Shown: positions 36,423-60,162 of the stretch, piece by piece
Numbering within the stretch: the stretch's first letter is position 1
Layout: each line of letters starts with the position of its first letter
From: Corallococcus carmarthensis
GTDB lineage: Bacteria > Myxococcota > Myxococcia > Myxococcales > Myxococcaceae
Direction of reading: 5' to 3'
NCBI RefSeq assembly: GCF_003611695.1
Contig: NZ_RAWE01000006.1
Coordinates: 1-64,000 of the forward strand
DNA length: 64,000 nucleotides
Position numbers and translations under genes: made by a program
Notes under the pieces: model-generated
What the model was told of the DNA's origin: nothing
Database searches by the model: none
What the model saw: the letters and a program-made list of their open reading frames with translations, nothing else

Positions 36423-38201
36423 CTAACGGGAGGGCTCCATGCGGCTCCCGACGAACAGTCGTCGGTCGTCGATTCTCGCGAGGCACCGGGCTCCTCTGGC
36501 GGAGAACGCGACGGGGGCAAGGCCCGAGGCGTCACTGAAGGCGTGAAGTTCCCGTGTCTTCAAGTCCAAGACGGAAATCGCGCGCTCCCGCACCGGGGAT
36601 GCTTCCTCGGCCACGATGACTGCATCGGGGCCCGCCCGGAGGATCGGGGTTTCGTAGGTCGAATAGAGCCCGTCCACCTGAAAGGGGAGGGGAGTGGAGG
36701 CGCGGAGCCATTGCCGGAAATCTCCCGGGTGCTCCGAAACGACATCGCCGTCCAGTGTCACGACGACTGGAACGCCATCGCGCTCCGCGCGAACGCCAAG
36801 CACGCCGCCCGCGAAGCCGAGCATGGAGAAGCCGAACATCAGATGTTCGTCGCTGCGAAGCACCTCATGTTCGTCGCCAGTGTCGATATCGATGACCCTG
36901 AGTGTCACGGGATCCTCGTGCCCGTAGCCCTGGGAATACCCGTTGACGTGCCTGGGTGTAACGAGTGTGAGGGCGACCTTGTTTCCCGCTGCGGCGATGG
37001 CCGTGCAGAGCCCGGGCAGCTCAAGGACGGGTTGGCCTTCGATGACAATGGCGGACTTCCCCAGTCGCCACCACGCGGTGATGAGGCGCTCCCCCGCGAA
37101 TGTGCCCAGGGCATGCGTGGTCGGCTCCTCGACCACGCGCTGGAAGTCACGATACAGGGCATTGGCGCTCGCACGAGCGCCCGTGAGCCCATGGATCAGT
37201 TGGGAGATGAGGTGTCGCCGTTGGTGGGGACTGCGCTCCTCGATGTCCGCGGTGCCCTGCTGTTTCTGGATCCGGAGGATGAACTCACTACCCCCGTTGT
37301 CTCCGAAGGAATACAGCTCTGTCTCTACCCCTGGACGCGGATCGGTTTCCTCGGGCGTCGAACGGATGCTGAAGAGGGACCGTGGAACGCTCGGTTCGAG
37401 CGAGACAGGCACGTCAAGCCAGTGCGCGACCTTCTGGACGAACGCGGCCCCGGTCTTCGCATCAGAGGCATCGATGCTGCCTCCGGTGAGCCAGACGCCT
37501 TCATCGAGGACGTAGCGTGTTCCCAGTGGATGCTTCTCCAGCGCGAACTTCACCCGGAGCGGTGGCTTCTTTTCGAGTTCGGGGCGAGCGAACGACAACA
37601 CGCGTGCCGTTGGGAGTGCCTGACCTTCGATAAGCCGCAATGACACATCAAGCCAGTCTGCCCCTGCGAGCTGTTCGACCAGTGAATCGAACCCATCCGA
37701 CAAGGACTCTTCGAGCGCTTCTTGGATGGACGGAGGGACGCTGTTGCCTTCAATCCTGGGCATGGCGCGCTCCTCGGTCATCTCCATGCCGTGGAAGACA
37801 AGTCCGTCCATGGTGTACCCCGACAGCACGACCTCACCCGTGGGGGATGCCTGGGCAATCGCCATCGCGGTGCCGTCATAAAGAGAGACATGGAGGGCTT
37901 CGCATCCGAGCGCACGGGCAATCTTCCCCAGTCGGCTTTCGCCCGTGTGTCCAGGCTCGGCAAGCAGCTCCAACGGAGCCGTCTTGGCGATGGACCAGCC
38001 GTGCATTCCGGATCCAAGCGCGCACGCCCATCGGTCGGAGGTCGCTCCGGTCCCGTACTGCATCCGGTCCCAGGTCTCGCGCTTGCGCGGCGAGTAGGGA
38101 ACCGCCACGAGTCCCTCCGTGACGCAGAGGTCCGAGATGACGCGTTCGAGCACGTCGAGTTCACGTGTCTTGAAGAGTGTGATCTGTCCCCATTCGCCCA
38201 T
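36423..38201 (-). CDS. protein of unknown function (592 aa) divergent from the Zorya operon
   Basis: No signal peptide, membrane segment or known catalytic motif. The N-terminal ~150 residues (ITLFKTRELDVLERVISDLC … WACALGSGMHGWS) look globular. The C-terminal half contains several beta-rich segments (LRVIDIDTGDEHEVLRSDEH; RAISVLDLKTRELHAFSDAS) that resemble WD/propeller blades. It may be a stand-alone cytoplasmic protein, or belong to the defence locus because it shares a 183-bp divergent promoter region with zorD. No related copy is seen in the window. Its 3' end lies 25 bp from relic F. Confidence 0.6.
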   Translation of the reverse strand: MGEWGQITLFKTRELDVLERVISDLCVTEGLVAVPYSPRKRETWDRMQYGTGATSDRWACALGSGMHGWSIAKTAPLELLAEPGHTGESRLGKIARALGCEALHVSLYDGTAMAIAQASPTGEVVLSGYTMDGLVFHGMEMTEERAMPRIEGNSVPPSIQEALEESLSDGFDSLVEQLAGADWLDVSLRLIEGQALPTARVLSFARPELEKKPPLRVKFALEKHPLGTRYVLDEGVWLTGGSIDASDAKTGAAFVQKVAHWLDVPVSLEPSVPRSLFSIRSTPEETDPRPGVETELYSFGDNGGSEFILRIQKQQGTADIEERSPHQRRHLISQLIHGLTGARASANALYRDFQRVVEEPTTHALGTFAGERLITAWWRLGKSAIVIEGQPVLELPGLCTAIAAAGNKVALTLVTPRHVNGYSQGYGHEDPVTLRVIDIDTGDEHEVLRSDEHLMFGFSMLGFAGGVLGVRAERDGVPVVVTLDGDVVSEHPGDFRQWLRASTPLPFQVDGLYSTYETPILRAGPDAVIVAEEASPVRERAISVLDLKTRELHAFSDASGLAPVAFSARGARCLARIDDRRLFVGSRMEPSR

Positions 38202-38384
38202 GGTGGAGCGTATATCGCGAACTCCACGGCGGCGGACTCGCGAGTGCTTCTGGGGGAGAACTCGGGAGGCGGATGCTAGCGGCGGGATGCCCGGGAACTC
38301 AATACCCCAACAGGGTGATGTTCCTGCACGTCATGAACGCGATACGTCACCGGGGGACGGACGGACAGCTCTCCTGGCAGGCCC

Positions 38385-41219
38385 GTGAACCCAGATACCC
38401 GTGCCCCCCTTCCGCGCTGGTTCATTGATGCGGACCGGCTGTGCATTGCTTTGCCCCCCCTGCCTCCGGAGTTGGCCGCGAGGGTCCAGTTGCGGAGGGA
38501 TGATTGGAACGCCAAGGGATGGAGTGACGGCCAACGGTTGTGCTTCAGCCGGGAGCAATGGCTTGCACTCGGCCGTCCGGGCGAGGGGGGCTTCGATGCG
38601 GAGGAGCACGAGTATTCACGGGAGGAGTGGGCGTCGACGCAGCACCTGCTGATGGACCTGCTGGGCCTCCAGCAGCAATCCCTCCGCTGGGAGGTCGTAG
38701 GCATCCCAGGCGGCGCCGGTGCCCGCTACAAGGTTCGCGTGGACGGTGAGCCCATTCTCGCCACGGGAGCGCCCTTTCCCTGGACGGTCAGCTCTCCGGA
38801 AGGAGCCACATTCCCCCTGACGCCCACGGCGGCCTGGGCCTGCGCCGAGGCTCACCGCGCGACCCATGCCTCGACGCAGGAGCAACTGGCCGTGGTCGTC
38901 CGGCTGCGAGGCGTGCTGGAAGATGTATCGGGGCTGCTGGGAGACCGCATCCCGTTCGCGCCCACCGGATTCCTCAAGACCTTCGAACCTCGCGCGGTGA
39001 GTCGCCTGGGATTGCGTTGGGAGCATGACGCCGACCTCACGGAGGTGGTCTCCCTTCGCCCCTACGCCGTCTTCGCGGATGGGACGCGCGCGGACTTCTC
39101 CCTGTCTTCGGTACGGCCGGGCGGCATCGCGGGAGAAGACGCCCGGCGCCCCCTGCTGCTTCCCGAACACACCGACGAGGTGCTGGCCAGAACCCGTCCC
39201 CTCCAGCGACGCCTCGTGGCCGACGTCACGCGCGAAATGGCGGACCCGTCGCACCTCATCCCGGAGGGACGAGACCTCGACGCGAGCCTGGAACTCTCGC
39301 AGTACTCGCCCCGGGTGGCGGGCTTCGAACTCCTCCGGGGACGCCAGCCGGGGGAAGGCCGCGAAGCCACCGGGTTGGAATGGGTCGAACCGTCCTCGCC
39401 CTCCGAATCTTTCGCCCTGACCCTCCACGTCAACGAGACGGGCATGCGCCTCCAGTTGAAGTCGCGTGAGGAGGCGCTGGAGGTCCTGAACCGGAACGAT
39501 GCGGCGCTGGCCAGCGCCACCCCCATGCCCCTGAACGTGGGCGGACAGCAGGTGTTCCCAAGTGAGGCACTGGGGCGTCAGCTTCGGATCGCGCTCGGTC
39601 TGTCCGCGCCTGCCGGGGAGGTGGAGGTGGTACCCGACGACGCCCCCCGAGCCGGGGGCCGTCTTGGAGCCATCGTCCGCGAAGCGGAAGCACCATCGTC
39701 CGCGGAACCACGGGTGGACGACGCATCGCCCGTGCCGTGGGAAAAGCTGGAGCAGGCCTTCCGTCCAGGCGTGTCTCTCAAGCCACATCAGAAGGAGGGA
39801 CTCGCCTGGCTGTGGCGCCATGCCGTTTCTGGAAGTCCCGGCGTCCTGCTCGCGGACGACATGGGCCTGGGCAAGACATTGCAGGTCGCGTGCTTTCTGA
39901 CCTTGAGACTGCTCATGGCTGAAAGGGACGCGCGGCCCCATTTGGTGGTCTGCCCCACCATCCTGTTGGACAACTGGAAGCAGGAACTGAACCGCTTCTT
40001 CCGGGAAGAGCTCTGGCAAGCCGCCTTCATCCTGCATGGGCAGGACCTCCGGGCCGTGAATCGCGGGGACGGACTCGACACCGACTTGCTCGCGCAGCGG
40101 ACGTTGATCATCACCAACTACGAAACGCTGGGAGCCTATCAGCGCTCGCTGTTGAAGGTGGATTTCGGCGTCGTCGTCTTCGACGAGGCCCACCTGCTCA
40201 AGAATCCGGACACGCTGCGCTCCCGCGCGGCCCGGGCCCTCAAGCGGAGCTTCGCCGTCGCGCTGACGGGCACACCGGTGGAGAACGAGCTGTTCGATGT
40301 CTGGGCCGTCTACGACGCGATCCAGAGTCGTGCGCCCCGGGTCTTCGGCCCTCGTGCCTCCTTCCGGGAGGAACATGGCGGTGCGCAGGGCGCATCCACC
40401 CTGCGGACGCGGCTGAAGTATCCGTCCAGGGACAGCACGCTGATGCGCCGGGAGAAGGCGGAGGCGCTCAAGGACCTGCCGGAGAAGCGATATCACAGCC
40501 ATCCGGTGGAGATGACGGCGCTTCAGGAGGAACAGGAGCGGCTCATTGCCCGGCAGGCGCCGAAGCGCGGCGCGCTATGGGCCCTCTCCGCGCTCCAGAA
40601 GCTGTATCAGCATCCCGCGCTCCTGGCGGACTCGCGCGGGCTCTCCGCCGCCACCGCGCTCCAGGAGAGCCCCAAGACCCGCCTCTGCCTGGAGTTGCTC
40701 GCGCGGGTGGAGTCCACGGCCAGCGGAGCGGATGCGCAGAAGGCCCTGGTGTTCGTCCTCTCCCGGGCGATGCAGGAGCTGCTATCGGGCCTCATCCAGG
40801 AGCGCTTCCGCCTGCCGGAAGTCCGCATCATCAACGGAGAGCCGGAGAGCCGCCGTGTAGCCCTGGACGCCATCGACGAATTCTCCAAGGCACGGGGCTT
40901 CCAGGTCCTCCTGCTGAGTCCATTGGCCGCGGGCGCGGGGCTCAACATCGTCGCCGCCAACCACGTCATCCATTACGGGCGCTGGTGGAATCCCGCCAAG
41001 GAGGACCAGGCCACGGACCGGGCCCACCGCATCGGTCAGGTCCGGCCCGTCCACGTCCACTATCCGTTGCTGCACCGGCAGGGACGCCCCGATTCAGGCT
41101 TCGACATGCGGCTCCACGAACTCGTCGAACGCAAGCGTTCGCTGGCACGTGACTTCCTGGCTCCCGTTCCGGATGAGGCGCGGCAGTACTCGGGTGTGTT
41201 TCAAGAGGGGGACGGCTGA
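38385..41219 (+). CDS. zorD: SNF2-family helicase, ZorD-type component of a Zorya system (944 aa)
   Basis: The first ~450 residues are an unrecognised accessory region. The SNF2 helicase core follows: SLKPHQKEGLAWLW (Q-like motif), DDMGLGKTLQ (Walker A, ~residue 495), VVFDEAHLLKN (Walker B, ~599), ALTGTPVENELFD (motif III), and in the second lobe LLLSPLAAGAGLNIVAANHV and QATDRAHRIGQ (motif VI, ~874). It lies 3 bp before zorA. In type I Zorya the ZorD helicase (~1,080 aa in E. coli) acts against phage DNA. This copy is shorter and comes first in the operon rather than last. The start used is GTG 38385; no strong ribosome site is visible, so the start is uncertain. Confidence 0.82.
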   Translation: MNPDTRAPLPRWFIDADRLCIALPPLPPELAARVQLRRDDWNAKGWSDGQRLCFSREQWLALGRPGEGGFDAEEHEYSREEWASTQHLLMDLLGLQQQSLRWEVVGIPGGAGARYKVRVDGEPILATGAPFPWTVSSPEGATFPLTPTAAWACAEAHRATHASTQEQLAVVVRLRGVLEDVSGLLGDRIPFAPTGFLKTFEPRAVSRLGLRWEHDADLTEVVSLRPYAVFADGTRADFSLSSVRPGGIAGEDARRPLLLPEHTDEVLARTRPLQRRLVADVTREMADPSHLIPEGRDLDASLELSQYSPRVAGFELLRGRQPGEGREATGLEWVEPSSPSESFALTLHVNETGMRLQLKSREEALEVLNRNDAALASATPMPLNVGGQQVFPSEALGRQLRIALGLSAPAGEVEVVPDDAPRAGGRLGAIVREAEAPSSAEPRVDDASPVPWEKLEQAFRPGVSLKPHQKEGLAWLWRHAVSGSPGVLLADDMGLGKTLQVACFLTLRLLMAERDARPHLVVCPTILLDNWKQELNRFFREELWQAAFILHGQDLRAVNRGDGLDTDLLAQRTLIITNYETLGAYQRSLLKVDFGVVVFDEAHLLKNPDTLRSRAARALKRSFAVALTGTPVENELFDVWAVYDAIQSRAPRVFGPRASFREEHGGAQGASTLRTRLKYPSRDSTLMRREKAEALKDLPEKRYHSHPVEMTALQEEQERLIARQAPKRGALWALSALQKLYQHPALLADSRGLSAATALQESPKTRLCLELLARVESTASGADAQKALVFVLSRAMQELLSGLIQERFRLPEVRIINGEPESRRVALDAIDEFSKARGFQVLLLSPLAAGAGLNIVAANHVIHYGRWWNPAKEDQATDRAHRIGQVRPVHVHYPLLHRQGRPDSGFDMRLHELVERKRSLARDFLAPVPDEARQYSGVFQEGDG

Positions 41220-41222
41220 ACC

Positions 41223-43247
41223 ATGTTCATCATCATCATGCAGGCCTTGCGGGACGAATCCCTGCGCATTCCGCTGCTCATCATCGCACTGTTGGCGTTG
41301 CTGTCCCTGGGCGCGGTGGTCGAGCGCTGGAGGCGTTTGCGCAACGCCATCCAGACGCTGGAGCAGAAGCTGGAGCAGTTGCTGACGGGCCGTCTCCAGG
41401 AGCCCGGCGACCGCGACGAAAGCCGCGCCTTGTGGCGGGCCGTGCGCGAGCAGCTCGTCTTCCCTCCCGGAAGGCAGGAGGTCCCGGGGCCTGTCCTCAT
41501 GCGTTCGTCGCCGTCGCGGGAGCTGCGTGAGACCTGCCGTGCGTTGTTTCGCCACTCCCTGGGGCATGGAATCGGACGGAACCTGACGGGCATCGCGCTG
41601 GTGATGACTTTCGGCCTGCTGGGCGTCGTGCTGGTGGGGCCCGTCCAGGAGGCACTCACGAGCACGGGGGGCAGCGGCCATTCGCAGTCGGACCTGCTCT
41701 CCCAGGCCATCGGGAAGATGGGCGCCAAGTTCTTCATCTCCGCGACGGGGCTGGTGGGCACGCTGTTCTTCCAGATGATTGCATTCTTCTGCGAGCGCAA
41801 GCTCCTGGGGCGGTTGGATGCGATGCGCCTGGGCTTCGAAAAGTACACGCGGACCCTCGATGCGCATGAAATCGCCCTGGCCTCGGCGCGGGGGGATTCC
41901 CTGGGATCGCTGAAGACAGAACTCGTCCAGACCCGGAGGGAACTCGCCGAACAGCTCTCACAGCTCGAAAGCGTGAATGTTTCGATCCAGGGCATCGGCA
42001 CGGAGGTCCAGGCCCACTTCGGGAAGATGATGAAGGAGGAGGTCGGGGACGTCATCACGCGGCAGTTGAGCGCGGTGGAAAAGGCGGTGCGCGACATCGC
42101 CACGGATCTCCAGCGTTCCATCTCCACGAACTTCACTGCGTCGCTGCAATTGGAGATGGCGAGCATCAAGGCCCACCTGGATGGCATCCAGCAGGCGCTG
42201 GTGGGGCAGCAGGAGCACGACCTGGGTCGGATCCTCGAACAGCTCCGCGACACGGTGTCCGGCGGGTTCCATTCCCAGTCCCAGGACATGGCCCGGCAAA
42301 TGGCAGGCTTGGTGGAGGTGCTTCCCCAGTTGGAGAAGCAGCTTGGGGCAATGACCCAGATGCTGGGCAACCAGGCACGGCAGTGGGGCAGCGAGAACCA
42401 GCGTGCCGTGGAGGCACTGGGCGAGAAGGTGTCCGAACTGGTGGGCAGCTTCGACGGTGTTCGGGACAACATGGAGAAGGCGGTCGCGCAGGTGCTGAGG
42501 AGCGCCACCACGGCCTCCGTTGATCTGGGGCGTCAGAACCAGCAGGTCGTCGACCAGCTGGCGGGCAGCGTCTCCAACATCGTGGGCAGTTTCCAGGGCG
42601 TGCTCACGCGGATGCAGGAGAGCTCCGACCAGATGGTTCGCGCGACCGCGCACGTGTCCCGAGATATGCACGCGAGCGCCGTGCAGCAGTCCGGCATCCT
42701 GAATGATCAACTGGCGGAACTCCGGGCCCGGTCCGAGGCCGACGTCGGTCATTTCCAGGCTCGCGCCGATGCCTTCGCCAAGGCGATGGAGCAATCGCAG
42801 GACGGCCTGCGCTCCGTGACGAAGCAGCTCAACGACACCGTGGACAAGCTGGCTGCCGCGTCACGGAGCGCGGGCGAGACTCATCACAAGGCGGGGGTGG
42901 TCTCCGGGAAGATGGATGAGGTCGCGCAGCGGCTCATCGACACGGCCCGGTCCTTCCAACAGCTGTCCCAGGAACGTTCGGGGGTGGTAAAGCAGGAGGA
43001 GATGCTCCTCAACGCCCAGCGTGAGGCCCTGGAGCGCGTGACGCCGGTGCTCAACGGCCTGACGCGGACCTATGAGGAATCCATCAGCAAGCAGGTCCAG
43101 TTGCTGAGCAGCCAGTGGACGCAGGTCGTGAGCAAGGTCGACTCCGCTCTGGGTCGCTCTTCGAATGAATTCTTCCAGGGCGTGGAGGAGCTGGCGGACG
43201 TGGTGAACCAGCTCAAGGATTCATTGAAGCAGCAGGTGCGGCGATGA
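41223..43247 (+). CDS. zorA: Zorya protein ZorA, MotA-like inner-membrane channel with long coiled-coil tail (674 aa)
   Basis: Three membrane segments are visible (LLIIALLALLSLGAVVERW; GIALVMTFGLLGVVLVG; FFISATGLVGTLFFQMIAFF), as in the ZorA/MotA/ExbB proton-channel family. About 480 residues of almost continuous alpha-helix follow (SVNVSIQGIGTEVQAHFGKM; AVAQVLRSATTASVDLGRQN; QQSGILNDQLAELRARSEAD), forming the long intracellular tail that is diagnostic of ZorA. In the known system ZorA5-ZorB2 forms a peptidoglycan-anchored proton-driven motor that senses phage entry. Translation is coupled to zorB by the ATGA overlap at 43244-43247. Confidence 0.88.
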   Translation: MFIIIMQALRDESLRIPLLIIALLALLSLGAVVERWRRLRNAIQTLEQKLEQLLTGRLQEPGDRDESRALWRAVREQLVFPPGRQEVPGPVLMRSSPSRELRETCRALFRHSLGHGIGRNLTGIALVMTFGLLGVVLVGPVQEALTSTGGSGHSQSDLLSQAIGKMGAKFFISATGLVGTLFFQMIAFFCERKLLGRLDAMRLGFEKYTRTLDAHEIALASARGDSLGSLKTELVQTRRELAEQLSQLESVNVSIQGIGTEVQAHFGKMMKEEVGDVITRQLSAVEKAVRDIATDLQRSISTNFTASLQLEMASIKAHLDGIQQALVGQQEHDLGRILEQLRDTVSGGFHSQSQDMARQMAGLVEVLPQLEKQLGAMTQMLGNQARQWGSENQRAVEALGEKVSELVGSFDGVRDNMEKAVAQVLRSATTASVDLGRQNQQVVDQLAGSVSNIVGSFQGVLTRMQESSDQMVRATAHVSRDMHASAVQQSGILNDQLAELRARSEADVGHFQARADAFAKAMEQSQDGLRSVTKQLNDTVDKLAAASRSAGETHHKAGVVSGKMDEVAQRLIDTARSFQQLSQERSGVVKQEEMLLNAQREALERVTPVLNGLTRTYEESISKQVQLLSSQWTQVVSKVDSALGRSSNEFFQGVEELADVVNQLKDSLKQQVRR

Positions 43248-43978
43248 GCTCTGGGGGAGAGAGCAGTGACCGATCACTCGCGGACCTGATGGCGGGCGTG
43301 GCGGTGGTCTTCCTGCTGCTCGCGGTCATCTTCATCCTGGATGCTCGCCAGCAGCGCGAGGAGGCCATCCGCGAGAAGGAAGTGGCCATTGGCAAGGTGG
43401 ATTCACAGAAGGATGGCGTGCAGGCATCGCTGGTGGCGCTCCGGGCGGAGTTGGTGACCCTGGACTCCGACCTGGATGGTGGCTTCATCGAGATGAGCGG
43501 GTTGGACGGCGGGGTGAACGCGCTGGAGATTGAATTCAAGAACCTTCAGTTCGGACTGGGGGAGTGCCGCACGCCTCCGGAGTACGTGGCGCAGTTCCGT
43601 CAGGGGGCGGTGCCGCTCATCGAACGCGTCTGCGCGGCCGTGGACGCGATGCGTGACGCGGGCGCCGAGCCGTCCATCATCTTGGAAGGACATACGGACG
43701 ACCGTCCCTTCCTGGGCACGAGCGGCGAGTGTGGCGTCCGCAATGGCGTGGCGAGGTTCAGCTTCGAGAACAACGTCCGCGCCAGCGCCTCCCGTGCGCA
43801 GGAGGTGTTCTTCACGGTGCGTGATCAGCTCCCGGCCGCCGGCTACGCGCGCACATGCCTGGACGCGAACTTCGTGGTGTCGGGACGAGGTCAGACCGCG
43901 CCCCGGACCGGGACGGAGGGCGACGATCCCGCCAACCGCCGGCTTGTGCTTCGTGTTCGCGGCGACCTGCGTCTGTAG
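43244..43978 (+). CDS. zorB: Zorya protein ZorB, OmpA-domain stator partner (244 aa)
   Basis: One N-terminal membrane segment (DLMAGVAVVFLLLAVIFIL) carries the Asp in LADLMAG, the equivalent of the MotB proton-binding aspartate. After a coiled-coil linker comes an OmpA/MotB peptidoglycan-binding domain (ILEGHTDDRPFLGTSGECGV, FSFENNVRASASRAQEVFFT, GRGQTAPRTG). This composition is that of ZorB. It would pair with ZorA in the inner membrane and grip the cell wall. The start overlaps the zorA stop by 4 bp, and zorC begins 11 bp after its stop. Confidence 0.88.
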   Translation: MSSGGESSDRSLADLMAGVAVVFLLLAVIFILDARQQREEAIREKEVAIGKVDSQKDGVQASLVALRAELVTLDSDLDGGFIEMSGLDGGVNALEIEFKNLQFGLGECRTPPEYVAQFRQGAVPLIERVCAAVDAMRDAGAEPSIILEGHTDDRPFLGTSGECGVRNGVARFSFENNVRASASRAQEVFFTVRDQLPAAGYARTCLDANFVVSGRGQTAPRTGTEGDDPANRRLVLRVRGDLRL

Positions 43979-43989
43979 TGGGGGACACC

Positions 43990-45396
43990 ATGGGGCTGGA
44001 TGACTTGCTGGACGAAGTGGGGGAGCGGCAGAAGGTCGTCCTGGCTGCGTTCGGGACGTTCCAGCAGCAGGTGGAGGATGGGATGCATCAGCTCGTCCTC
44101 CGGGCGGAGGCCGTCCAGCAGCGTGCGGACGAACTCGAACCGGAACGTCTGGCCCGGCTGCAACAGGCGCTCGACGTCGGGGCCGTGCTATCGAAGGTGA
44201 AGGCTCAGGACTTCGATGGGCTGAGCCGCAGGGAGCGGCGCGCGGTGACGGGACTGTGGCGGGACGTGGGCCTGGACGGCATGACCTGGTTCCTTACGCG
44301 CAGCCCTGACAGCGTGCCGAGGCTGGTACGGCAGCGGCTCCGGGACTGGAGCGCATCCGAGGACGCCGCCACGCAGCGGAGCTGGGCCCAGTTGGTAGGG
44401 CGTCGCGTCGAGGACAAGCGCGTGTTGAGATGGGCATTGCCGATGTCCGTCGAAGCGGCGTTGGGAGGCGAGGGTCCCAGCACGCTGGCTCGTCACTGGC
44501 GGGACCACGGCCTCGCGGAAATGGTGGGGATGCTCCGGAACTCCGGCATCAAGGAGACCAGTCCCTACGCTGGCCATGTCATCGCGGAGTACCTGGAGGG
44601 ACGCCTCCAGACGCGTCAGGACCTGTCCCAGGCGATGGCCTTCCTCGTGGACGACCCCGGGGGACTCTCCTGGATGCCGCACAGGAACGTGGACGGCGTC
44701 GCGGTGTCGGCGCCGATAGAGGCCCGCATCGCGGTCATCTCCAAGGTCCTGGAGTGTCGACTGGCCGGACGAATGGCTCCGGCCGTCCTCACCCGGCTGG
44801 AGGAGCGGTTGATTGCAAGGGACGGTGTTTTCGATGATCCCCGGCACACGACGCTGACCCAGGGGTGGCAGTCGGTCCGTGCTCGCGCTCCGGATGCCTT
44901 CGACGCATTCCTGTCCGCGCTCATCCAGCAGGATCTGGAGTTCTTCTTCGAACGCGCCATGAACGAGCAGGATCGGCGGCGGTTCTGGTTGAACTACTTG
45001 GGCTCCATCAGGAGGACGACCTGCTGGCTTGCTTCCGAGGCGTATGACGCATTGAGGGCACGGCTCGCGAACCTGCCAGTGGAGCAGCAGGCCGCTTTCC
45101 GGCGGGCCCGGCGCCTTCCAAGAGGCAGGACGAGCGCGTTCGTCCTCACCTTCGAGCGGTACGTGGCCGTGGAGTTCTCCGACACCGGGAATGCCACGTA
45201 TGTTTATGAGCATAGGAGTCTGGATCAAAAGCTCAACGGCCAGCCTGTGGAGCATCACAATGATCTCAAGGACACACCCCAGGAGTATTGTGAGAGGCGA
45301 TTGACGCACCTTCCCGGATGGGAAATCCGCTTTGAGCAGGAACTCCTGGAGCTGGGAATCGCCCGGGACCGTCAGGTGAAACGCGTGGCACGGTGA
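43990..45396 (+). CDS. zorC: Zorya protein ZorC-like (EH_Signature domain, 468 aa)
   Basis: Cytoplasmic, no membrane segment. The central and C-terminal parts carry the layout of EH_Signature proteins, with a conserved Glu block (DLEFFFERAMNEQDRRRFWL) and later His-containing segment (QPVEHHNDLKDTPQEYCERR with LTHLPGWE). ZorC is the partner defining type I Zorya together with the helicase ZorD. It binds DNA in the published model. Here it is the last gene of the operon, start ATG 43990 close behind zorB, and is followed 54 bp later by a 30-bp perfect palindrome that may end transcription. Confidence 0.82.
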   Translation: MGLDDLLDEVGERQKVVLAAFGTFQQQVEDGMHQLVLRAEAVQQRADELEPERLARLQQALDVGAVLSKVKAQDFDGLSRRERRAVTGLWRDVGLDGMTWFLTRSPDSVPRLVRQRLRDWSASEDAATQRSWAQLVGRRVEDKRVLRWALPMSVEAALGGEGPSTLARHWRDHGLAEMVGMLRNSGIKETSPYAGHVIAEYLEGRLQTRQDLSQAMAFLVDDPGGLSWMPHRNVDGVAVSAPIEARIAVISKVLECRLAGRMAPAVLTRLEERLIARDGVFDDPRHTTLTQGWQSVRARAPDAFDAFLSALIQQDLEFFFERAMNEQDRRRFWLNYLGSIRRTTCWLASEAYDALRARLANLPVEQQAAFRRARRLPRGRTSAFVLTFERYVAVEFSDTGNATYVYEHRSLDQKLNGQPVEHHNDLKDTPQEYCERRLTHLPGWEIRFEQELLELGIARDRQVKRVAR

Positions 45397-45450
45397 ATGC
45401 TGCCGCGCGTCGGCATTCCCCGCAGCGCGGCCCTGGACGCGAGAACCGGT

Positions 45451-45480
45451 GCCTTGGTCCTACAGCTGTAGGACCAAGGC
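45451..45480 (+). terminator. 30-bp perfect palindrome closing the Zorya operon
   Basis: GCCTTGGTCCTACAG is followed immediately by its exact reverse complement, 54 bp after the zorC stop. As RNA it gives a 13-bp stem with an AGCT loop. No T-tract follows. It is likely the operon's terminator, or the mark of a former insertion or boundary site. Confidence 0.6.
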
Positions 45481-58155: not shown

Positions 58156-60162
58156 TTACTCCTCCACGGCCTCCTGGGGCTCCTGGAAGTCCACGTCGAA
58201 GTTGACGCGCTGGCCGGGCTCGATGGTGAAGGTCTTCTGCCAGTGCGATGGACCCACGGTGACGTTGAGGCGGTGGTAGCCCTCGTAGACGTCCAGCTCC
58301 TCCACCGGGACGACGCCCACGGGCTTGCCGTCGACGGAGACGTTGGCGCCAGCGGGGCCGCGAACGTTGATGAAGGCCTTGTTGAGGAAGAACTGGTAGG
58401 CGGAGCGGCCGGTGGGGGCCACCGTCACGGTGCGCGACACGGAGATGCCGAGCGCGCCGTTGGTGAAGGTGAGCAGGTGCTTGCCCGGCGGCAGCGACGC
58501 GGACAGCGGCGTGCGGCCCAGCAGCGCGTTGTTGAGCGTGACCTCCACGCGGGGATCCACGGTGAGGTCCAGGATGCCCATCGTCGGGCCCGCGTCCACA
58601 CCGGCGTCCACGCCCGCGTCCTCGATGCCCGCGTCGAAGGGGGCCGCCACGACGGCGGGCAGGCCCGCGTCGAACGTCTCCACCGTCATCGTGCCCTGGA
58701 GCTGGCGCTGGATGACCACCGCGCCCGCGCCGAGCGTCAACACGAAGCCGCCCACCACGTACGGCACCCAGGAACGCGAAGGCTTCTGCGCGACAGCGAC
58801 CTGCGCCACGGGGCTCGCCGCGCCACCGAAGATGGGGCCCGTGGGCCGTGTCTCCTTGGAGGTCGCCGGAGCAGGGGAGGGCGCGGCAGTGCCACCCTGT
58901 GCCGTGGCACCAGCGGGCACCGTCACGGCGCTCGGGATGCTCGGAGCCGCAGGCTGCGCTGACGCCGTGGCCGGAGCGGTCGGAGTGCTCTGCGCGGCCG
59001 TTGAAGCCTGCGCGCTCTGCGTGACAGCGGGCGTCGATTGCTGCGCGGCCTGCACGGGCGCGGAGGCCTGCGCGGAGACAGGGGCCTGCGGCGCGGCAAC
59101 CACGGGCTGCGCGGGAGCAGCCGTACTGCTCTCCGCCGAAGAGAGCTCCGGCACCTTGTTCTTCACGGGCTCCGCGAGCCCCACGCCCTGCGCGATGAGC
59201 TCCGCGATCTGCGGCGCGGGCATGCCCGCCTTCGCCAGCACCTCCGCGATGCCCTTCTCGATGGTCGCCCGCCGCGCCGCGCGCGCATCACTCTCCGGCG
59301 GGAACAGCTTCGCCAGATGCTCCGCGAAGGCCTCGTGCTCCGGCAGCTTCCCGATGGCCTCCACCAACGCCTCGCGGAACGCGAGCGCCGACGGGTAGCG
59401 CTCCAGCGCGCGCTTCGTCGTCGCGCGGCGCACGACGGCATCCAGCTTGAGCGGTACGTCCGCCGGCATCGGGGGCAGGGCGCGGTTGAGCACCGCCTTG
59501 TCCGGATCCGCCGACTCCTTGAACGGCATCTTCCCGGTGAGGCACTCGTGCAGCGTGAGCCCCAGCAGGAACACGTCCGACTGCACGTTGACCGCTTCGC
59601 GCCCGCCCAGCAGCTGCTCGGGGGACGTGTACGCGCGCCGGTTCTTCACGCGCTTGCCACCGCGCTCACGCGGCGCCACGGAGAGCGCGCCGTAGCCCGT
59701 CACCTTCGTGAAGCCGCTGAAGGACACCATCAGCGTCTCGGGCCGGATGTCTCCGTGCACCAGCGGCGAACCGTCGTCGTTGCCCGCCACGTGCGCGTAG
59801 TGCAGGCCCATCGCCGCGTCCGCCACCACCAGCGCCGCGAACGCGGGCGACATGCGCGGGTTGGCTTCCAGCACGCGCCGCAGCGGTTCGCCGTCCGCGA
59901 ACTCCGTGACGCGCGCCAGGCCTCCGTCCAGCTTCTCCAGGCCGTGCACGCGCAGGATGTTCGGATGGTCGAAGACGATGGCGCGGTTCGTCTCGCGCTC
60001 CAGGCGCGCCACCAGCTCCGGGTTCTGGGCAATCTCAGGCGGTGCCCAGATGAGCACCACGGGGCGGGGCGTGGCACCTTCCTCCAGCGACAGGCCGAGG
60101 AAGGCACGCGAGCCCTCTCCAGCGAGGAGGGGGCCGAGTGAATGGTAGCGAGGCGAACTCAT
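58156..60162 (-). CDS. serine/threonine protein kinase-like pseudokinase with PEGA domain (668 aa)
   Basis: Residues ~8-270 have the kinase fold, but key residues are changed: the VAIK lysine strand reads PVVLIWAPPE, the HRDxKxxN loop reads HGDIRPETL (Asp kept, Asn replaced), and the DFG is VTGYG. APE-like SPEQLLG and the distal LGLTLHECLTGKMPF are kept. So it is probably catalytically weak or dead. A Pro/Ala/Thr/Gln-rich linker (~340-450), one membrane segment (WVPYVVGGFVLTLGAGAVVI) and a C-terminal PEGA domain follow (TVDPRVEVTLNNALLGRTPL; KPVGVVPVEELDVYEGYHRL). It may be a signalling scaffold. It lies 53 bp downstream of the HtrA gene. Confidence 0.82.
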   Translation of the reverse strand: MSSPRYHSLGPLLAGEGSRAFLGLSLEEGATPRPVVLIWAPPEIAQNPELVARLERETNRAIVFDHPNILRVHGLEKLDGGLARVTEFADGEPLRRVLEANPRMSPAFAALVVADAAMGLHYAHVAGNDDGSPLVHGDIRPETLMVSFSGFTKVTGYGALSVAPRERGGKRVKNRRAYTSPEQLLGGREAVNVQSDVFLLGLTLHECLTGKMPFKESADPDKAVLNRALPPMPADVPLKLDAVVRRATTKRALERYPSALAFREALVEAIGKLPEHEAFAEHLAKLFPPESDARAARRATIEKGIAEVLAKAGMPAPQIAELIAQGVGLAEPVKNKVPELSSAESSTAAPAQPVVAAPQAPVSAQASAPVQAAQQSTPAVTQSAQASTAAQSTPTAPATASAQPAAPSIPSAVTVPAGATAQGGTAAPSPAPATSKETRPTGPIFGGAASPVAQVAVAQKPSRSWVPYVVGGFVLTLGAGAVVIQRQLQGTMTVETFDAGLPAVVAAPFDAGIEDAGVDAGVDAGPTMGILDLTVDPRVEVTLNNALLGRTPLSASLPPGKHLLTFTNGALGISVSRTVTVAPTGRSAYQFFLNKAFINVRGPAGANVSVDGKPVGVVPVEELDVYEGYHRLNVTVGPSHWQKTFTIEPGQRVNFDVDFQEPQEAVEE

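What the first reader, a model, noticed from the sequence alone, without database searches (positions are those of the whole stretch)
38385..45480. Zorya anti-phage operon with the helicase gene first (zorD-zorA-zorB-zorC)
Seen: an SNF2 helicase 3 bp before a MotA-like protein with a ~480-residue coiled-coil tail, which overlaps by 4 bp an OmpA-type MotB-like protein, followed 11 bp later by an EH_Signature-like protein. Known: type I Zorya consists of ZorA, ZorB, ZorC and ZorD, classically in that order. Here the helicase leads, is ~140 residues shorter, and has a long unrecognised N-terminal region. This may be a rearranged myxobacterial subtype.
Basis: partly seen in the sequence, partly recalled or inferred. 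Interest (0 to 1): 0.85.

Follow-up and report, generated by a model that had tools for sequence, protein, structure and literature searches.

The report
Helicase-first Zorya operon in myxobacteria
This is a complete four-gene Zorya-type anti-phage operon in which the DNA helicase gene comes first instead of last, and it belongs to a separate, deep branch of Zorya carried by many myxobacteria, so it is a new variant of a known defence system and not a new kind of system.

Summary
The four genes are present as described, intact, in one tight operon (38385-45396). Profiles place all four in the Zorya families: ZorD 6e-138, ZorA 2e-10, ZorB 9e-13, ZorC 2e-18, plus Pfam EH_Signature 7e-40. The motor residues are conserved (ZorB D14, ZorA T129/S173), as are the helicase motifs. 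The D-A-B-C order is not a one-off. 16 of 19 intact Zorya loci with EH_Signature in Myxococcota have it, in two families; three have A-B-C-D. In trees of ZorD, ZorB and ZorC the D-A-B-C loci form one deep, supported group, apart from A-B-C-D loci of the same phylum, and their ZorB carries four invariant cysteines. The ~7.1 kb cassette is 88-89% identical to two Corallococcus copies with different flanks, so it moves as a unit. NCBIfam's ZorA-D cut-offs are not met, so automatic annotation would likely miss it. No description of helicase-first Zorya was found in the held literature. Defence activity itself is inferred. Verdict: new variant of type I Zorya.

The parts
38252..38384 (+). upstream leader that travels with the operon in close Corallococcus relatives; probably holds the promoter
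   Evidence: identity to L031 and L033 begins at 38252/38253, and flanks beyond do not match; promoter not tested
38385..41219 (+). zorD-like gene: SNF2-family DNA translocase/helicase, Walker A DDMGLGKT (residues 491-498), DEAH (600-603), diverged ZorD-type N-terminal region (about 1-450)
   Evidence: PADLOC ZorD1 6.4e-138; E. coli ZorD 8qy7 2.1e-70; Pfam SNF2-rel_dom and Helicase_C; N-terminus by hhalign
41223..43247 (+). zorA-like gene: MotA/ExbB-type motor subunit with predicted TM helices near 16-34, 121-139 and 170-188, polar residues T129 and S173, ~486-residue helical tail
   Evidence: PADLOC ZorA1 2e-10; alignment columns of T147/S184 in the E. coli plasmid ZorA L045
43244..43978 (+). 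zorB-like gene: one TM helix with motor Asp D14, OmpA-type peptidoglycan-binding domain, four invariant Cys (108, 130, 163, 205)
   Evidence: PADLOC ZorB1 9.4e-13; Asp conserved in all aligned ZorBs, cysteines in 16/16 D-A-B-C loci
43990..45396 (+). zorC-like gene: EH_Signature protein, 468 aa
   Evidence: Pfam PF15611 6.6e-40, above cut-off; PADLOC ZorC1 1.6e-18; E. coli-type ZorC 8r68 7.4e-7
45451..45480 (.). perfect inverted repeat (15-nt arms) just after the operon, possible terminator; lies outside the conserved cassette
   Evidence: sequence as read; function not tested

Best explanation
The locus is a complete, probably functional type I-like Zorya anti-phage operon of a distinct lineage in which zorD leads. 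By analogy with E. coli/Shewanella Zorya I, ZorA and ZorB form a 5:2 inner-membrane rotary motor anchored to peptidoglycan. Ion flow through D14 of ZorB, past T129/S173 of ZorA, turns or twists the long cytoplasmic ZorA tail when a phage disturbs the envelope. The tail then recruits ZorC and ZorD, and the ATP-driven helicase ZorD processes or degrades incoming DNA near the entry site. Shown here: gene content, intact frames, family assignment, conservation of motor and helicase residues, monophyly, operon integrity, cassette mobility. Inferred: that it defends against phage, the 5:2 assembly, activation and nuclease action. The order D-A-B-C probably reflects one ancestral relocation of zorD (a cyclic permutation of A-B-C-D), with no proven functional consequence.
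For: All four PADLOC Zorya families. EH_Signature above cut-off. Matches to the solved ZorD and ZorC. ZorB Asp and ZorA Thr/Ser in the columns of known motors, a site that PMC11890865 shows to be needed for defence (ZorB D24 of type I). D-A-B-C order with nearly constant junctions in 16 loci. One supported group in the ZorD tree (100/100) and in the ZorB and ZorC trees (98, 98 SH-aLRT). Patchy presence: own genome plus 5 of 15 other genomes of the genus. Cassette 38252-45396 is 88-89% identical to L031/L033 with unrelated flanks, as expected of a transferred defence module.
Against: NCBIfam equivalog cut-offs for ZorA, B, C and D are not met, and ZorA and ZorB similarity to E. coli-type proteins is weak, so function may have drifted. 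No nuclease domain was found by Pfam, though E. coli-type ZorD shows none by Pfam either. No other defence gene beside it was found among the flanking ORFs tested, apart from a generic Ser/Thr kinase. Structure prediction failed for lack of a deep alignment.
Confidence: 0.87

Rival explanations
1. The lineage is ordinary type I Zorya in every functional respect. The gene order is a neutral accident fixed by common descent, and no subtype name is warranted. (This is a reading within the best explanation, not an alternative to its being Zorya.)
For: All components and key residues are the classic ones, and the N-terminus of ZorD is homologous to that of classic ZorD.
Against: Very long stem branches in all trees (1.69 in ZorD, 3.47 in ZorB), four lineage-specific ZorB cysteines, and equivalog cut-offs not met suggest more than a swap of order.
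Confidence: 0.5
2. The operon is a cellular motor system (for example for motility or envelope transport) that has recruited a helicase, and is not a defence system.
For: Myxobacteria use MotAB-like motors for gliding (Nan et al. 2013, cited in PMC12505986); ZorA and ZorB are strongly diverged.
Against: Patchy distribution (20 of 195 Myxococcota with EH_Signature), transfer as a cassette with unrelated flanks, and ZorC plus ZorD, which belong to Zorya.
Confidence: 0.05
3. The order is an assembly artefact or the system is decayed.
For: The draft assembly has 530 contigs.
Against: The order recurs in independently assembled genomes, including single-contig ones (L026, L033, L040), and all frames are open here.
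Confidence: 0.01

Closest known systems
Zorya type I (ZorA-ZorB-ZorC-ZorD; E. coli, Shewanella ANA-3, Serratia)
   Same: All four components, motor Asp and Thr/Ser, long ZorA tail, peptidoglycan-binding type ZorB, EH_Signature ZorC, SNF2 ZorD with a homologous N-terminal region
   Different: zorD first instead of last; ZorD ~35% identical over the helicase only, ZorC ~27% over its C-terminal third; four invariant ZorB cysteines at other positions; below NCBIfam equivalog cut-offs
A-B-C-D Zorya loci of other Myxococcota (L027, L029, L032) and alphaproteobacteria (L047, L049)
   Same: Same four components, in the same phylum for three of them, with ZorD of similar length (914-921 aa)
   Different: Classic order; a separate clade in ZorD, ZorB and ZorC trees
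Zorya types II and III
   Same: ZorA/ZorB motor
   Different: Type II has ZorE and type III has ZorF/ZorG in place of ZorC/ZorD (PMC11890865, PMC8565338); the operon here has ZorC and ZorD

Membership tests
Zorya type I (by component content) | ZorA: MotA/ExbB-like subunit with long cytoplasmic tail | tested here: met
   PADLOC ZorA1 2e-10, aligned T129/S173, ~486-residue tail; no Pfam MotA_ExbB hit
Zorya type I (by component content) | ZorB: MotB-like with membrane Asp and OmpA-type domain | tested here: met
   PADLOC ZorB1 9.4e-13, D14 and the EGHTD...N..(A/L)S..RA motif aligned; no Pfam OmpA hit
Zorya type I (by component content) | ZorC: EH_Signature protein | tested here: met
   PF15611 138 bits against a cut-off of 27.5; PADLOC ZorC1 1.6e-18
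Zorya type I (by component content) | ZorD: SNF2 helicase of the ZorD family, with ZorD-type N-terminal region | tested here: met
   PADLOC ZorD1 6.4e-138, better than DpdE 1.4e-65 and DrmD 1.1e-22; N-terminal hhalign
Zorya type I (by component content) | phage defence that needs all four genes | not testable with these tools
   needs an experiment
E. coli-type Zorya I equivalogs (NCBIfam NF041790, NF041789, NF033914 and ZorB) | score above the curated equivalog or subfamily cut-off | tested here: not met
   ZorD 270 against 1500, ZorC 41 against 490, ZorA 22.6 against 190; no type I ZorB model was hit, and the ZorB2 model scored 16.5 against 400
Classic gene order A-B-C-D | zorD last | tested here: not met
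   zorD first here and in 15 further loci
Long ZorD with Mrr nuclease | C-terminal Mrr_cat domain (PF04471) | tested here: not met
   absent here and in E. coli-type L045; present in L046 and L077

The most novel reading that the evidence does not exclude
D-A-B-C Zorya is a functionally distinct subtype. Leading with zorD changes effector stoichiometry, and a disulfide-bearing ZorB (four invariant periplasmic cysteines) gives a different trigger suited to myxobacterial envelopes and phages.
Probability: 0.2. Interest if true: 0.55.

Novelty: new variant of a known kind. Interest (0 to 1): 0.42.

Why it matters
It shows that Zorya I is deeper and more varied than the E. coli-like group on which structures and profiles rest. 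A whole lineage with its own order and its own ZorB chemistry falls below NCBIfam's current cut-offs and would likely go unnamed. It gives a natural comparison for asking which parts of the motor-to-helicase signal are essential, and a defence cassette to test in a genetically tractable predator, Myxococcus xanthus.

Tried and rejected
AlphaFold models of ZorD (pLDDT 44) and ZorC (pLDDT 59) from six-sequence alignments were too poor to use; Foldseek on the ZorC model gave no match at E <= 0.001, and the VIA-align rows were only generic helical-repeat arrangements. ZorC relatives in viral contigs and phage records: none found. Viral contigs gave many SNF2 helicases, but only one full Zorya locus (L140, A-B-C-D). 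Reaching Pseudomonadota chromosomes by genome handles failed: handles G250, G228 and G704 led to phyla with 1 to 7 genomes. Gene order outside Myxococcota therefore rests on plasmids, one viral contig, cyanobacteria and one further genome (L204): no D-A-B-C was seen there. Rejected: that the N-terminal ~450 residues are an unrelated new domain; that short length sets this ZorD apart. A defence island around the operon was not found among the ORFs tested.

Full report
Observation. The ZorD start is a GTG; relatives start at the equivalent position, and the region upstream of it diverges between loci.

Identity of the proteins. PADLOC profiles give ZorD1 6.4e-138 for the helicase (far ahead of DpdE 1.4e-65 and DrmD 1.1e-22), ZorA1 2e-10, ZorB1 9.4e-13 and ZorC1 1.6e-18. 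Pfam gives SNF2-rel_dom and Helicase_C for D and EH_Signature, well above its cut-off, for C. Among solved structures the best match of D is E. coli ZorD 8qy7 (2.1e-70; residues 459-930 on 574-1067) and the only match of C is ZorC 8r68 (7.4e-7). NCBIfam's ZorA, ZorC and ZorD models are hit, but far below their curated cut-offs, so the proteins are diverged relatives and not equivalogs by that standard.

Working parts. In an alignment of 21 loci, ZorB D14 falls in the column of the motor aspartate and is invariant. ZorA T129 and S173 fall in the columns of T147 and S184 of the ZorA on an E. coli plasmid (L045), and the OmpA-type motifs of ZorB are kept. PMC11890865 reports that the type I ZorB aspartate packs against a ring of Ser/Thr of ZorA and that the aspartate, the tail and the peptidoglycan-binding domain are needed for defence. 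ZorD keeps DDMGLGKT (491-498) and DEAH (600-603).

The N-terminal region of ZorD. Profile-profile comparison of 16 D-A-B-C N-termini with those of A-B-C-D ZorDs gives E 1.3e-6 (256 columns) and 3.8e-8 (205 columns), with 0.34 for a column-scrambled control; against the E. coli-like subset alone it is weaker (5.6e-4, 74 columns). It includes a shared motif, LSQYSPRVAGFELL / LDIAKYGDRVIGIGEF. It is thus a diverged version of the usual ZorD N-terminus. Classic ZorDs also show no Pfam family before the SNF2 domain, and an Mrr nuclease domain is seen only in the long ZorDs L046 and L077. ZorD length ranges from 914 to 1290 aa in A-B-C-D loci, so 944 aa is ordinary.

Gene order and descent. EH_Signature was found in 20 of 195 Myxococcota genomes. 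Of 19 intact loci, 16 are D-A-B-C (15 in the window's own family, one in another family, L043) and three are A-B-C-D (L027, L029, L032); the twentieth is a fragment. Junctions are nearly constant. In the ZorD tree the 16 D-A-B-C loci form one group (ultrafast bootstrap 100, SH-aLRT 100, stem 1.69), apart from all A-B-C-D loci, including those of the same family and order. Quick ZorB and ZorC trees agree (SH-aLRT 98 each). Long branches and an unknown root mean that the ancestral order is not settled. Plasmid-borne loci (E. coli/Klebsiella, Nitrosospira, Polaromonas, Zymomonas, Polymorphobacter, Azospirillum), one viral contig (L140) and L204 are all A-B-C-D. Pseudomonadota chromosomes could not be sampled directly, so rare D-A-B-C loci elsewhere are not excluded.

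A lineage mark. All 16 D-A-B-C ZorBs have four cysteines in the periplasmic part, at the same distances from the motor aspartate in 15 of them (C108, C130, C163, C205 here). A-B-C-D ZorBs have two or four at other positions and cyanobacterial ones almost none. Two disulfides are a likely but untested reading.

Mobility. The window's cassette matches L031 and L033 at 88-89% identity from 38252/38253 to 45396/45407 and then stops, apart from an 88-bp upstream remnant in L033. In L026 the upstream gene (36423-38201, -) is shared too. Only the window genome and 5 of 15 others of the genus carry EH_Signature. This is the pattern of a transferred defence module. Among the flanking ORFs tested no other defence system appears, apart from a generic Ser/Thr kinase.

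Mechanism. The best reading is the Zorya I mechanism: a peptidoglycan-anchored ZorA5B2 rotary motor senses envelope disturbance, its tail recruits ZorC and ZorD, and ZorD acts on the incoming DNA. Only anatomy and descent are shown here; the mechanism is carried over from studied relatives. My knowledge of the E. coli work (Hu et al., Nature 2025) is from memory, because that paper is not held.

Novelty. No paper in the held library describes helicase-first Zorya or a myxobacterial Zorya lineage. Subscription papers and supplementary tables were not searchable. I rate it a new variant of a known kind.

Noticed in passing
L078-L093, L096, L097 (cyanobacteria): ZorA-ZorB-ZorC without any recognisable ZorD within about 8 kb in 18 loci where A, B and C were found, forming their own clade; either a three-gene relative of Zorya or one with an unlinked or different effector.
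   Followed up: partly
L035:6571-8595: zorA of this D-A-B-C locus is split by an in-frame stop into 410 + 263 residues while the other three genes are intact; decay or a sequencing error.
   Followed up: no
window 36423-38201 (-): A 592-aa protein without known domains lies divergently upstream of zorD here and in L026, with an 88-bp remnant at the same place in L033; homologues occur elsewhere in Zorya-less genomes (G078, G080).
   Followed up: partly
L118:8494-10521 and L048:7524-9461: Short ZorD-like SNF2 helicases (about 645-675 aa), without recognised ZorA, B or C nearby, on a viral contig and on a Bradyrhizobium plasmid beside an integrase.
   Followed up: no
L046:8975-12826 and L077:10593-14372: Betaproteobacterial plasmid ZorDs of about 1260-1283 aa carry a C-terminal Mrr_cat nuclease domain that E. 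coli-type and myxobacterial ZorDs lack.
   Followed up: partly
window 58156-60162 (-): Ser/Thr kinase with PEGA domain that scores on PADLOC PD-T4-6 profiles (6.5e-37); probably an ordinary myxobacterial kinase.
   Followed up: no
window 45451-45480: Perfect inverted repeat with 15-nt arms just after zorC, outside the conserved cassette; possible terminator or integration scar.
   Followed up: no
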